Source: Athripsodes cinereus (lineage: Eukaryota > Arthropoda > Insecta > Trichoptera > Leptoceridae). Taken from it: a DNA stretch of 64,000 nt. Within the stretch, counting starts at the first letter, position 1, and every line of letters starts with the position of its first letter. Location of the stretch: positions 11,033,982 to 11,097,981 of the forward strand of contig OX388314.1 of the NCBI GenBank assembly GCA_947579605.1, in the 5' to 3' direction. Of the stretch, positions 29,306 through 53,860 are shown in pieces. A program made the position numbers and the translations under genes. The notes beneath the pieces are model-generated. The model did no database searches, had not been told where the DNA came from, and saw only the letters and a program-made list of their open reading frames with translations.

Positions 29306-29432
29306 CTTTCCATTTTCATTCTCTCTTAGAGCATGCCAATATGAGTGTAAATTAATGTTTTAGCACTATACAGTAACTGTCTGACTTTTTATTTTACTTT
29401 ATTCGAATTTTATCTATGCTATGTATTTTGCT

Positions 29433-31942
29433 ATACATCCAAAAATTGCTAGATGACACAAAAGCAGAGGAAAATGTTATTGTAATGGGAGACTGGAACG
29501 CAGTAGTAGGGGAAGAAAGGGAGGGATCAATCGTAGGAGCATATGGGTTGGGCACTAGAAATGATAGAGGTAACCGTCTCATTGAATTTTGCGCCAAAAA
29601 TAAAATGTTTGTAGCCAACACCTGGTTTCAACACCACTATAGACATCGCTATACATGGAAATCTCCCGGAGACAGATTTCGATTACAGATTGATTATATT
29701 CTTACGCGTCAACGATACAGGAATCAAATTAAAGATTGCAGGAGCTATGCAGGTCCGGACATTGATAGCGATCATAATATGGTTGTGGCGGAAACCATAC
29801 TGAAATTCAAAAGGCTCGAGAAGAGAACCACAAAAAGATGGGACCTAAAGATGCTAAAAATAAAGGAAGTAAAAGAGAAATACGACGAAAAAACTGAGAT
29901 ATGCGATTTTGTGAGCAATGATAATGTAGATAAAGTATGGGGGAAAATTAAAGAGAAAATAACCGCAGCGGCAGACGAGGTTTTAGAGAAAAGAAAGCCG
30001 CAAGCTAGGAAAGAATGGATCACAGACGACATTTTAAAAATGATCGAAGAAAGAAGGAAGCTAAAGAATTCTCAAACAGAAGAAGGGAAAAAAGAATATA
30101 AAGCCCTAAGGAATAAAATTAACAGAGAATCCAAGCTGAAAAAGGAATGTTATTTGCAAGAAAAATGCAAAAATATCAACAGAAATATAAAACAAAGGAA
30201 TTTCGAAACCGCATACTCTGAAGTAAAGAACTTCTTCAATGAAAAAACACAGCCACGATGTGCTATACAAGATAAAAACGGCAAACTGCTGTTTGAGGAC
30301 GAACTGATCGTCAAAAGATGGAAGGAATACCTAGAACAATTGTACAAAGGAAAGAGCATACTCCAGGAAAGCAAAGCACTGGAAGCAGAATATGACGTAG
30401 AAAATAATGGAGATGACATCTTAAGAAGTGAATTTGATATTGCATTAGCAAAGTTGAAAGACGGCAAAGCACCAGGCATCGACCTGATCCCATCAGAGCT
30501 GCTTAAATGCGCGGGAAAAGGCATGCTTGATACATTGTACAAGCTCGTCTGCAAAATATACGACACAGGAGAGATACCTGAGGACTTTGCCAAATGTCTG
30601 ATACGAGCGCTTCCTAAGAAGGCAGGCACGACAAAGTGCGAACAACACAGAACCTTAAGCATGATATCACACGCTTCTAAGATACTCACCAACATTATAA
30701 TGAAAAGGGCGGAAAATAAAATAAACGAAACACTTTCAGAAGATCAATTTGGATTCCGCAAGGAGACTGGTACAAGAGATGCAATCCTGAGTCTCAGACT
30801 TATTCTAGAAAAGAGAATAACAGTTAATAAAAACACATATATAGCATTCATCGACCTAGAAAAGGCATTCGATAAAGTAGAATGGGAACAACTTTTTAAC
30901 ATCCTAAACGAAATAGGAATGAGTTTCAAAGACAGAAGAGCAATCTGGAGCCTATATAAGAACGAAATGGCCGTAATTAAAAGCGGAGAGAGCTGCGCAG
31001 AAGCAAGGGTCGAACAAGGCGTAAGACAAGGATGCTCAATGTCGCCAGCTCTCTTTAACTGCTATATACAGCGAGCCATTGATGAACTGAGAGAAGAAAT
31101 GAAGAACTGGACAGGAGTCAAAATAAATGGGAAAAAGGTCGACATGATCAGATATGCTGACGACATAGCACTGCTCGCAGACTCCGAGATGGAGCTGAAC
31201 GAAGCCTTAGGCAAAATGGAAAGTATTCTGTTGTCAAAGTACAACATGAAAATAAATAAAGAAAAAACAAAATGTATGGTCGTTGGAAAAGAGGAAGCGA
31301 CTGCGAACATTGCCATAAATGGAGTGAGCATCAAACAAGTAAGTGAATTCGTGTACCTGGGCAGCAGAATAAACCAGGATGGACGCTCCAAATCGGAAAT
31401 TGTAAGCAGAATAAACCAGGCAAGGATTGCCTTTAACAAAAAATCAAAGATATTGGAATCCCCAAATATTGACTTAAGCGTAAGGAAGAACCTTACTAAA
31501 GCCTTTGTATGGAGCATTCTTCTTTATGGTTGTGAGACATGGACCATCAGCAAGAGTGAAAGCGGACGGTTGGCGGCCTTTGAGATGTGGTGCTACAGAC
31601 GCATGCTCAAGATCCATTGGTCGGAGCACGTCGAAAATGAAGAAGTATTAACCAGGGTAGGCGAAAAAAGGCAACTCCTTAAGAGAATCAGCCAACAACG
31701 AGCTAACTGGATTGGCCACAACATCAGGCATCCAGGACTACTCATCGCCATCGCAGAGGGTAAGACCGAGGGGACAAATGGCAGAGGCCGACCAAGAGAC
31801 GCATATATGGACCAACTGAAGAGAGACATGAACTGTGGCTCATACGTAGGGCTAAAAAGACTGGCTGAGAATAGAGACGAATGGAGAAGAAAAACCAAAC
31901 TCGTTGCAGACCAATCCAGTGGATTGTAACTCATTATATATA
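29433..31942 (+). mobile_element. RTE-A LINE, longest copy, 13-bp TSD
   Basis: The longest RTE-A copy in the window. tatgtattttgct (29420-29432) and tatgtattttact (31943-31955) are the TSD, with one mismatch. The element is truncated at the 5' side inside the endonuclease domain, as expected from target-primed reverse transcription. It ends about 13 bp after the stop codon in attatatata, so there is essentially no 3' UTR. Its reading frame has no stop or frameshift over 2.5 kb, which points to a recent insertion from an active source. Confidence 0.93.
29434..31929 (+). CDS. RTE endonuclease/reverse transcriptase, 5'-truncated
   Basis: About 831 codons. The first ATG (29416) lies in flanking DNA, so the frame has no start of its own. 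Counting from that ATG: the end of an apurinic-type endonuclease ([12 protein letters not shown] near residue 26, SDHN near 118); a Lys/Glu-rich linker; then reverse transcriptase with [32 protein letters not shown], motif [14 protein letters not shown] (about 480), motif [12 protein letters not shown] (about 537), catalytic YADD (about 578), motif [11 protein letters not shown] and VYLGSRI. The post-RT part has [32 protein letters not shown] and [15 protein letters not shown], the layout of RTE/BovB C-termini. The catalytic RT residues are intact, but the endonuclease lacks its N-terminal half, so this copy should not retrotranspose by itself. Confidence 0.93.
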
Positions 31943-41859: not shown

Positions 41860-42253
41860 AGTAGTAATACTCGTACTTGTGGGTTTACTCGTGTGTAACG
41901 GATCGTTATTATTGAGACTCAACAAATTATATTGACTTTTCCTTTACTACCACTAACCAGCCAAATGATACCAATAATAATATGAAACTGAATTATTATT
42001 TTCATAGAGTGTTGAGCTTGTGAGTACCTACATATATATATATAGGCCGAGCCTCATTCCGTATGCAAAGGCATGAGCCAAGTCTCTGCCCGACTGTACG
42101 CAGTGAAATGGAGTAAAACCTTCACCTTCATACTATCTCCTGCGTAAAATCAAATGATCTTTCATTCATGAGGTGCATGTTGTACATGCATTTCGGATGA
42201 AAATTAGATCATACAGTCTTCATAATATGCGATGCTCCTCGCATACAGGATTT

Positions 42254-42322
42254 GATGTTGTGTCGGTCATTATGTAAGATGGTCCTGATGAGACACATGC
42301 GCCAATGTCGAAACATAACATC
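42254..42322 (+). ncRNA. Hammerhead ribozyme, unit 1
   Basis: Core CTGATGA (42285-42291) and GAAA (42310-42313) with cleavage triplet GTC (C at 42264). Stem III: gatgttgtgt (42254-42263) with acataacatc (42313-42322), 10 pairs with one G-U. Stem I: ggtcat (42265-42270) with atggtc (42279-42284), loop tatgtaag. Stem II: gaca (42292-42295) with tgtc (42306-42309). Stems I and II are closed by loops and stem III is open, so the topology is type III. Stem III can extend through ggattt (42248-42253) with aaatcc (42331-42336). Predicted cleavage is after 42264. Confidence 0.9.
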
Positions 42323-42566
42323 TCTTCGACAAATCCAAACTGCATGTTCCGGTGACGGGCCGAGCCTCGTTCCGTATGCAAAGGCATGAGCCAAGTCTCT
42401 GCCCGACTGTACGCAGTGAAATGGAGTAAAACCTTCACCTTCATACTATCTCCTGCGTAAAATCAAATGATCTTTCATTCATGAGGTGCATGTTGTACAT
42501 GCATTTCGGATGAAAATTAGATCATACAGTCTTCATAATATGCGATGCTCCTCGCATACAGGATTT

Positions 42567-42635
42567 GATGTTGTGTCGGCCATTATGTAAGATGGTCCTG
42601 ATGAGACACATGCGCCAATGTCGAAACATAACATC
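42567..42635 (+). ncRNA. Hammerhead ribozyme, unit 2
   Basis: Identical to unit 1 except that stem I reads ggccat, which turns a G-U pair into a C-G pair with the unchanged partner strand, so the helix is kept or strengthened. All core nucleotides are present. Predicted cleavage is after 42577, which would release 313-nt units. Confidence 0.9.
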
Positions 42636-42879
42636 TCTTCGACAAATCCAAACTGCATGTTCCGGTGACGGGCCGAGCCTCGTTCCGTATGCAAAGGCAT
42701 GAGCCAAGTCTCTGCCCGACTGTACGCAGTGAAATGGAGTAAAACCTTCACCTTCATACTATCTCCTGCGTAAAATCAAATGATCTTTCATTCATGAGGT
42801 GCATGTTGTACATGCATTTCGGATGAAAATTAGATCATACAGTCTTCATAATATGCGATGCTCCTCGCATACAGGATTT

Positions 42880-42948
42880 GATGTTGTGTCGGCCATTATG
42901 TAAGATGGTCCTGATGAGACACATGCGCCAATGTCGAAACATAACATC
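42880..42948 (+). ncRNA. Hammerhead ribozyme, unit 3
   Basis: Same sequence as unit 2, with complete core, stems and cleavage triplet. Predicted cleavage is after 42890. The last partial unit (from 42984) ends before its ribozyme. Confidence 0.9.
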
Positions 42949-43297
42949 TCTTCGACAAATCCAAACTGCATGTTCCGGTGACGGGCCGAGCCTCGTTCCG
43001 TATGCAAAGGCATGAGCCAAGTCTCTGCCCGACTGTACGCAGTGAAATGGAGTAAAACCTTCACCTTCATATATATATATATATACCTATGTATTATTTT
43101 ATTACTGGCTTTCATTATGATTTCTTTCAGAAAATAAACATCAGAAATTGTAAATTTACAATACTCGACAACATAATATTATATTATGATTTTTATTATT
43201 TAACAATAATGGCAACAAATATTTTATATTGTATTATTATTGTTGATACATGAACCTTGATTTGATTTAAAAAATTGGAGATTTGCTTTTTAATACT

Positions 43298-52817: not shown

Positions 52818-53860
52818 GCATTAGCATTCATCGACCTAGAAAAAGCATTCGATAAAGTAGAATGGGAACAACTTTTTAAGACTCTAAACCAGATAGGAAT
52901 GAGCTATAAGGACAGAAGAGCAATTTGGAGCCTATACAAGAATGAAATGGCTGTAATTAAAAGCGGAGAGAGCTGCGCAGAAGCGAGAGTAGAACAAGGT
53001 GTAAGACAGGGATGCTCAATGTCGCCAGCACTCTTTAACTGCTATATACAGCAAGCTATTGATGAACTCAGAGAAGAAATGAAGAATTGGACAGGAGTGA
53101 AAATAAATTGGAAAAAGGTTGACATGATTAGATATGCTGACGACATAGCACTGCTCGCAGACTCCGAGATGGAGCTGAACGAAGCCTTAGGAAAAATGGA
53201 AAGTATACTGTTGTCAAAGTACAACATGAAAATAAATAAAGATGAAACAAAATGTATGGTCGTTAGAAGGGAGGAAGCGACTGCGAACATTGCCATAAAT
53301 GGAGTGAGCATCAAACAAGTAAGAGAATTCGTGTACTTGGGCAGCAGAATAACCAGGACGGACGCTCCAAATCTTAGAATCCCCTAATATTGATCTAAGC
53401 GTGAGGAAGAATCTCACTAAAGCCTTTGTGTGGAGCATTCTGCTATATGGGTGCGAGACGTGGACCATCAGTAAGAGGGAAAGCGGACGGTTAGCGGCAT
53501 TTGAAATGTGGTGCTATAGACGCATGCTGAAGATTCATTGGTCGGAACACGTCGAAAACGAAGAAGTGTTAACCAGGGTTGGCGAAAAAAGGCAACTCCT
53601 CAAAGAATCTGCCAACAACGAGCTAATTGGATTGGCCACAACATCAGGCACCCAGGACTGCTCATCGCAATCGCAGAGGGCAGGACCGAAGGCACAAATG
53701 GCAGAGGTCGACCGAGAGACGCCTATATGGACCAATTGAAGAGGGACATGAGCTGTGGCTCATATATGGAGTTGAAGAGACTGGCTGAGAATAGGGAGGA
53801 GTGGAGAAATAAGTCAAACTCGTTGCTGACCAATCCAATGGATTGTAACTCATTATATAT
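52818..53860 (+). mobile_element. RTE-A LINE fragment, frameshifted, with TSD
   Basis: Starts inside RT motif A ([14 protein letters not shown]), includes [11 protein letters not shown] and YADD, and runs to the family 3' end. A one-base loss at aataaccagg plus a 57-bp deletion removes [17 protein letters not shown]. Another base lost in the aaaagaatc run shifts the frame again, so three separate open stretches remain. aggtatatt (52807 and 53861) is the TSD, 9 bp identical. Confidence 0.9.

What the first reader, a model, noticed from the sequence alone, without database searches (positions are those of the whole stretch)
42045..43070. Tandem hammerhead-ribozyme array: a retrozyme-like element
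Three complete 313-bp units each contain a hammerhead with intact CTGATGA and GAAA core, GTC cleavage triplet, 10-bp stem III, 6-bp stem I and 4-bp stem II. Transcription through the array should yield exact 313-nt RNAs. Tandem hammerhead repeats of a few hundred bp are known as retrozymes in plants and metazoans, and hammerheads also occur in Penelope-like elements and some satellites. This locus is a candidate new family of self-cleaving, possibly circular, non-coding RNA retroelements.
Basis: partly seen in the sequence, partly recalled or inferred. Interest (0 to 1): 0.96.

Follow-up and report, generated by a model that had tools for sequence, protein, structure and literature searches.

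The report
Self-cutting RNA parasite of Penelope elements
A genome, probably an insect's, carries hundreds of scattered copies of a 313-base repeat holding a hammerhead ribozyme motif, and the way the copies end suggests that its RNA likely cuts itself, probably forms circles, and is likely pasted into TA-repeat DNA by the enzyme of a Penelope-type jumping gene, the two DNA ends probably starting at two different places on the RNA.

Summary
The array is real: 3.3 units of 313 bp at 42045-43071, each full unit with an intact hammerhead core of type III topology (RF00008, 32.9 bits, E 5.5e-6, below its gathering score). It is no lone satellite: 293 hammerhead-core matches and 118 + 140 exact end junctions lie across the genome, 0 in reversed controls. 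In 79 loci, 112 of 132 arms end 3' at one of two internal sites (called 88 and 184), usually joined to (TA)n. 5' ends vary; the commonest single one is 221, the base after the predicted cut. Many copies are head-to-head pairs; of 20 in the genome-wide listings, 18 use one end of each kind. A Penelope-like family with a weak GIY-YIG match in the same genome has the same (TA)n target, two tail ends and 24 of 24 listed pairs head-to-head with mixed tails. I conclude: a retrozyme-like element with a ribozyme type unusual for animals, probably mobilised by that family. Cleavage, circular RNA and the helper are inferred, not shown at the bench.

The parts
42045..43071 (+). 313-bp tandem array, 3.3 units, single-arm insertion
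   Evidence: (L009 = this locus)
42033..42044 (.). (TA)6 tract at the 5' junction (target)
43070..43085 (.). (TA)8 tract at the 3' junction (target; overlaps the last two bases of the array)
42254..42322 (+). type III hammerhead, unit 1; predicted cut after 42264; U at 42267 weakens stem I
42567..42635 (+). type III hammerhead, unit 2; predicted cut after 42577
   Evidence: RF00008 match 42570-42632, 32.9 bits
42880..42948 (+). type III hammerhead, unit 3; predicted cut after 42890
42248..42336 (+). hammerhead of unit 1 with outer extension of stem III (GGATTT 42248-42253 / AAATCC 42331-42336); repeated in units 2 and 3
42124..42132 (+). presumed reverse-transcription start site '88' of unit 1 (ACCTTCATA, last base 42132); this array itself ends at the equivalent base 43071
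   Evidence: (repeat D1)
42218..42224 (+). presumed reverse-transcription start site '184' of unit 1 (CTTCATA, last base 42224 = unit position 180; the label 184 comes from the looser alignment)
   Evidence: (repeat D1)

Best explanation
This is a dispersed element of the retrozyme kind in what is probably an insect genome, made of 313-bp units that each carry a hammerhead motif of type III layout, whose RNA likely cuts itself to monomers, probably circularises, and is likely copied into (TA)n tracts by the protein of a Penelope-like element, each broken DNA end probably priming at a different one of two internal sites of the same RNA. Shown by sequence: the intact hammerheads, the dispersal, the (TA)n junctions, the two preferred 3' ends, the variable 5' ends with an excess at the cut position, the head-to-head pairs that mostly mix the two ends, and a Penelope-like family in the same genome with the same target, two tail ends and mixed head-to-head pairs. 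Inferred: transcription, cleavage, ligation to a circle, repeated copying of it (arms of up to 6.7 units, L033), the Penelope protein as the helper, and joining of the two cDNA 5' ends by end joining (short fillers and stutters at some junctions).
For: Hammerhead; in loci chosen without regard to the hammerhead, the ten invariant core positions keep 872 of 874 cells, while N7, the core position free to vary, is T79/C8; hammerhead positions vary less than the rest, 18 of 5930 against 150 of 23364, p 0.0014. Dispersal: 293 core matches, control 0; 118 and 140 exact junctions, controls 0. Ends: of 132 arms in 79 loci, 56 end at site 88, 56 at site 184, 20 elsewhere. Cut trace: 5' end exactly at 221 in 5 of 132 arms (binomial 7e-5; about 7e-4 with a rough correction for sampling) and in 1 of 41 more. 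Pairs: 34 head-to-head against 6 tail-to-tail; in listed junctions 20 outward, 1 inward, 3 same strand; 18 of 20 outward pairs mix the sites, p 1.5e-4. Templates: units of one arm differ by 0.65% against 1.46% for random partners; 30 head-to-head pairs (four without overlap) differ by 0.80% against 1.34%, 0 of 1000 draws as low, 42 of 44 marker alleles agree. Helper: (86 GIY-YIG matches; neighbours within 5 kb: 8 head-to-head, 0 tail-to-tail, 4 tandem, my reading of its table), tails of the third family, 24 of 24 pairs, its fusions with the retrozyme at L020 and L044. Frangieh 2024 (PMC11167929, main text read): a Penelope protein cuts AT-rich DNA, extends both strands and starts at two internal RNA sites.
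Against: No RNA data: transcription, cleavage and circles are unseen. Rfam at gathering scores finds no hammerhead and RF00008 stays below its cut-off. The isolated motif is predicted to prefer another fold, by 2.8 kcal/mol in units 2-3 and 7.1 in unit 1. Covariation is weak: 1 of 26 pairs changes on both sides (3 sequences), all 500 shuffles have at least as many further pair types, and the first pair of stem II is broken in 4 divergent sequences. The GIY-YIG score of the TA-targeting Penelope family is just below the Pfam cut-off (22.2 in L044, 20.8 in L112, cut-off 22.6); its reverse transcriptase piece had no Pfam hit and is named from motifs that I recall; the only longer copy seen is broken. 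In the four copies read, two other Penelope families do not abut (TA)n (L108-L111). That the short tails listed abut (TA)n was seen only in fetched loci (L112, L062, L081). Circular against linear multimer template is not settled: an arm that starts at 221 is longer than a monomer (L014, 586 nt). Two of 20 outward pairs break the mixed rule.
Confidence: 0.8

Rival explanations
1. A plain satellite repeat that spreads by unequal crossing-over and happens to hold a hammerhead.
For: Tandem, near-identical units; repeats with hammerheads are known in newts, schistosomes and cave crickets (PMC3088659 and PMC4918200, passages).
Against: Hundreds of dispersed places with two preferred 3' ends in (TA)n and head-to-head pairs; hammerhead core kept and less variable than the rest.
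Confidence: 0.03
2. The same element, but without a dedicated helper: DNA breaks in (TA)n tracts are patched by any reverse transcriptase, TA ends annealing to the RNA where both sites read CTTCATA, then A or C, then TAT.
For: Both start sites share an 11-base word (D1) that offers short complementarity to (TA)n; fillers and stutters at some 5' junctions look like break repair.
Against: 18 of 20 listed head-to-head pairs use one site each; the Penelope family shows the same pattern with other start sequences (24 of 24); Penelope reverse transcription was reported to start at RNA not homologous to the cut DNA (PMC11167929).
Confidence: 0.15
3. A LINE-mobilised element: target-primed reverse transcription with target-site duplications, as proposed for Nematostella repeats (PMC4918200, passage).
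For: Fixed 3' ends with variable 5' ends are also LINE-like; LINE-type frames lie in the window (29416-31929 and 52899-53387).
Against: Head-to-head arms with both 3' ends outward in 33 of 79 loci, with the two sites mixed, are not the LINE pattern that I know. LINEs with (TA)n tails were not searched for, and target-site duplications cannot be read inside (TA)n.
Confidence: 0.07

Closest known systems
Metazoan non-LTR retrozymes (Cervera and de la Pena 2020, PMC7229834; abstract, passages, sections 13 and 17 read)
   Same: Tandem units of a few hundred bp, dimers to multimers, GC below 50% (0.444 here), stable predicted RNA fold (z -4.9, 0 of 200 shuffles), no long frame inside; that paper proposes target priming on circular RNA and Penelope-like elements as a strong candidate helper.
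   Different: Those carry type I hammerheads; this one is type III. There helper and priming were hypotheses; here the two start sites, the (TA)n target, the mixed-site head-to-head pairs and a matching Penelope family give sequence evidence.
Plant LTR retrozymes (PMC4918200, passages read)
   Same: Type III hammerhead; non-autonomous; tandem.
   Different: Unit of 313 bp instead of 600-1000 bp; junctions in (TA)n; host probably an insect. LTR hallmarks were not searched for.
Penelope-like elements and their tails (PMC11167929, main text read)
   Same: AT-rich target, both DNA strands extended, two internal start sites, tandem copies, a hammerhead.
   Different: No long frame; a type III hammerhead with three stems instead of the minimal Penelope form.
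Type III hammerheads of HDV-like circular RNAs and of termite and fly genomes (PMC7936874, passages read)
   Same: Type III in an animal context.
   Different: Those have longer stems I and II and, in termite genomes, are isolated motifs. A delta-antigen-like frame was not looked for here.

Membership tests
Retrozyme (broad sense) | Hammerheads repeated in tandem, bounding a non-coding unit | tested here: met
   no frame of 150 aa or more in the array; shorter frames were not scanned against families
Retrozyme (broad sense) | Dispersed multi-copy element with retroelement ends | tested here: met
Retrozyme (broad sense) | Self-cleaving, circular RNA in vivo | not testable with these tools
   only indirect: 5' ends at the cut base, 5 of 132 and 1 of 41 arms
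Metazoan non-LTR retrozyme | Type I hammerhead | tested here: not met
   topology is type III
Metazoan non-LTR retrozyme | Low GC, 150-450 bp unit | tested here: met
   313 bp, GC 0.444
Plant LTR retrozyme | LTRs, primer-binding site, polypurine tract, 4-bp target duplication | not tested
   no search for primer sites or polypurine tracts was made
Penelope-like element | Frame with reverse transcriptase and GIY-YIG | tested here: not met
   no frame of 150 aa or more in the array
Penelope-type integration | Two internal start sites, both DNA ends extended, AT-rich target | tested here: met
   (from genomic copies; not biochemically)
Hammerhead ribozyme type III (RF00008) | Score above the Rfam gathering cut-off | tested here: not met
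   32.9 bits against 48.5, E 5.5e-6
Hammerhead ribozyme type III | CUGANGA, GAA, UH cut site, three stems, stem III open | tested here: met
   core kept across copies

The most novel reading that the evidence does not exclude
One ribozyme RNA bridges a double-strand break in (TA)n: the two halves of a Penelope-protein dimer load the same retrozyme RNA at its two start sites, so that one DNA end primes at site 88 and the other at site 184, and both are copied into head-to-head multimers. This two-site, two-end rule would be the general integration mechanism of Penelope-like elements, hijacked by a type III retrozyme and by a second, 397-bp tandem element of the same genome whose ribozyme, if any, is unknown.
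Probability: 0.45. Interest if true: 0.92.

Novelty: new variant of a known kind. Interest (0 to 1): 0.84.

Why it matters
Which enzyme copies animal retrozymes back into the genome, and how, was left open by the papers that I read; Penelope-like elements were named as a strong candidate (PMC7229834). Here the genome holds the footprint of the reaction: target, two start sites, both-end priming, template identity and a matching Penelope family. It also bears on the 2011 survey's suggestion (PMC3088659, passage) that repeat propagation in eukaryotes may require type I hammerheads: a type III one has spread to hundreds of places. The mixed-end pattern makes a concrete, testable model of Penelope integration.

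Tried and rejected
Rejected: a single-locus satellite. Rejected reading of my own: one search seemed to show that opposite arms of a locus come from unrelated RNAs (1.58% against 1.59%); that set mixed in independent neighbouring insertions, limited to head-to-head pairs within 60 bp, with arms of 50 bp or more and at least 96% identity, reverses it. One search's hammerhead-conservation p-value is biased, because L049-L087 were chosen by an exact 51-base hammerhead match; I use (L009-L048). The sampling correction used 65 and 67 arms; a recount gives 63 and 69, which changes little. Led nowhere: tRNA scan, pol III box search in the unit (none), Rfam on the 397-bp element, a hammerhead scan of the held loci (no family beyond this one; it did not list the Penelope motifs that I name by eye), pairing statistics (weak). 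Dropped rows: 12 of the 77 rows (short matches at the TA tract itself) were left out, the 24 printed 88-junctions beyond contig 13 were left out because the 184 list stopped there. The organism was not identified beyond probably an insect, perhaps hemipteran (best LINE relatives are psyllid, 61%). Paper searches (listings only except the six papers named) showed no tandem type III animal retrozyme in the held open-access library; PMC7761336 (passages) hints at unpublished type III elements in insects, so priority is not claimed.

Full report
Observation. The window holds a 3.3-unit array of 313 bp at 42045-43071. Each of three full units contains GATGTTGTGT-C / stem I hairpin / CTGATGA / stem II hairpin / GAA-ACATAACATC. 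Stems I and II are closed by loops and stem III is open, so the layout is type III. A strict type III search finds three sites, all here, and none in 300 shuffled windows. Rfam at gathering scores is silent and the E<=10 search of 1.3 kb lists no hammerhead; on 101 bases RF00008 Hammerhead_3 matches 42570-42632 with 32.9 bits, E 5.5e-6, under its 48.5 cut-off. An outer helix GGATTT/AAATCC extends stem III.

Dispersal. The window lies in a 716-Mb genome of 160 contigs. A 51-base hammerhead pattern with up to 3 mismatches hits 293 times (139 + 154), the reversed control 0. The exact 3' junction at unit position 88 plus TA repeats occurs 118 times, that of the second site 140 times, controls 0. 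I read 99 loci: 40 chosen by similarity to the whole unit, 39 by exact hammerhead match, 20 by the 88-junction.

Anatomy of copies. In the first 79 loci there are 132 arms: 56 end 3' at the 88 site (positions 78-90), 56 at the 184 site (176-184), 20 elsewhere; under a strict pattern, 44 and 44 of 132 run straight into TA repeats. The label 184 comes from the looser alignment; strictly the last shared base is 180, so both sites end with CTTCATA, 92 bases apart, within the repeated word CTTCATA(C/A)TAT. TA runs of 8 bp or more make up 106 of 64000 bases of the window, so the target is specific. 5' ends are spread over the unit; the commonest single value is 221, the base after the predicted cut: 5 of 132, plus L097 among 41 arms of the third set. 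The binomial for 5 of 132 is 7e-5; allowing roughly for the second set's selection it is 7e-4. The five have different flanks, and L074 belongs to a divergent subfamily.

Head-to-head pairs. Neighbouring arms within 60 bp are oriented -+ (3' ends outward) 34 times, +- 6 times and -- 5 times; 33 of 79 loci have such an outward pair. Four of the six +- cases (L010, L037, L041, L058) face each other across little but TA repeats, as separate insertions would. With the genome-wide junction lists (76 of 118 and 100 of 140 places, those printed on contigs 1-13), 20 pairs within 2.5 kb point outward, 1 inward, 3 lie on one strand; 18 of the 20 combine 88 with 184, where free choice gives 49%, p 1.5e-4; one is 88/88, one 184/184. 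The 20 loci show mostly mixed pairs too, but overlap.

Templates. Units of one arm differ by 208 of 32196 sites (0.65%), random partners by 1.46%. Thirty head-to-head pairs (four without overlap) differ by 25 of 3118 sites (0.80%) against 1.34%, 0 of 1000 random draws as low; marker alleles agree in 42 of 44 comparisons, and both disagreements are in L042, an 88/88 pair; another 88/88 pair, L028, agrees throughout. So an arm is copied from one molecule and, as a rule, the two arms from one molecule or from identical ones. This replaces an opposite impression, which mixed in neighbouring independent insertions. Repeated copying of one monomer fits a circle, but a homogeneous linear multimer is not excluded: L014 has a 5' end at 221 and 586 nt.

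Ribozyme under constraint. In L009-L048 the ten invariant core positions show 2 changes in 874 cells; N7 is T79/C8. Hammerhead positions other than N7 vary at 18 of 5930 cells, the rest (five common polymorphic sites removed) at 150 of 23364, p 0.0014; related copies are not independent, so the p-value is optimistic. Of 91 hammerhead instances in these loci (24 distinct), two distinct ones were set aside as rearranged before the alignment of 22. Covariation is slight: one A-U to G-C double change in stem II (3 of 22) and G-U to G-C in stem III (4 of 22); the first pair of stem II is lost in 4 divergent sequences. The 313-nt circle folds at -95.1 kcal/mol, z -4.9, 0 of 200 shuffles; forcing the hammerhead costs 1.1 kcal/mol.

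Helper. The genome search lists 86 GIY-YIG matches, with frames up to 887 aa (150 of 1102 candidates scored). Family A (L108) is an 832-aa tandem Penelope-like element with RVT_1 and GIY-YIG above cut-off. Families A and B (L108-L111) have a CTGANGA...GAAA motif between frames that resembles the minimal Penelope hammerhead (by eye and recall; my scan, did not list it) and do not abut (TA)n in the four copies read. Neighbouring GIY-YIG matches within 5 kb are 8 head-to-head, 0 tail-to-tail, 4 tandem (my reading). A third family, seen in L040, L044, L020 and L112, ends with ...GACTATCAATACA followed by (TA)12 in L112 and with ...CTTATCAACAACA followed by TA repeats in L036, L040, L062, L078, L081: two tail ends, same target. 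In one search (40 of 362 candidates scored; 65 of its 77 rows used), 39 long-tail and 24 short-tail copies appear; all 24 short ones pair head-to-head with a long one, none tail-to-tail, and no long-long pair appears (short-short pairs could not be seen with that query). Its GIY-YIG scores are 20.8 and 22.2 bits, just under the cut-off of 22.6. Retrozyme and this family are fused in L020 and L044, as template switching would do. Frangieh et al. 2024 (PMC11167929, main text read) report that a lizard Penelope protein cuts AT-rich DNA, extends both strands and starts at two adjacent internal RNA sites, the genomic tail; the match with the anatomy here is close. I therefore hold this family or a close relative to be the helper (inferred).

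Comparison. Animal retrozymes in the papers that I saw carry type I hammerheads (PMC7229834, PMC7761336); type III in animals is known from HDV-like RNAs, termites and flies (PMC7936874). My searches of the held library showed no tandem type III animal retrozyme. Filing: retrozyme in the broad sense, a new variant by ribozyme type and by the read-out of its integration.

Second element. A 397-bp tandem family (L113; 397 of 397 bases identical between its first two units) ends in TA repeats at two alternative points, seen together head-to-head in L104. One search lists dozens of its places, but that query stops at the second tail, so pairs cannot be typed from it. No Rfam match up to E 2.

Noticed in passing
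L113:1-1071; L104:1187-1685; L072:933-1153: Second tandem family, 397-bp period, same TA-repeat target with two tail ends 48 bases apart and, in L104, head-to-head arms; no hammerhead by my scan and no Rfam match. Candidate for an undescribed ribozyme or for another processing route.
   Followed up: partly
L108:1-3351: Tandem Penelope-like element with an 832-aa frame (RVT_1 and GIY-YIG) and a minimal hammerhead-like motif between frames (by eye).
   Followed up: partly
L109-L111: Another Penelope family with a CTGAAGA...GAAA motif between frames and tails of varying length into the next frame (by eye).
   Followed up: partly
L020:2148-2599; L044:702-1012: Direct fusions of the retrozyme with the endonuclease part of the (TA)n-targeting Penelope family.
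   Followed up: partly
L011, L013, L017, L030, L036, L046, L050, L053, L072, L106: A repeat beginning near GGACAATTTGTAAAGCGCCGTTTACTCATAACATGACC lies beside ten TA tracts: a frequent landing platform or a further (TA)n-targeting element.
   Followed up: no
window 42045-43071, - strand: The antisense strand of the unit stays open for some 90 codons in several loci; probably chance, not tested.
   Followed up: no
window 29416-31929 and 52899-53387: LINE-type reverse-transcriptase frames; the first is 61% identical to psyllid proteins, pointing to an insect host.
   Followed up: partly
L034:1715-1775, L021:1116-1131, L033:3233-3257: Short stuttered, templated fillers at 5' junctions, as in polymerase-theta end joining (recalled).
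   Followed up: no
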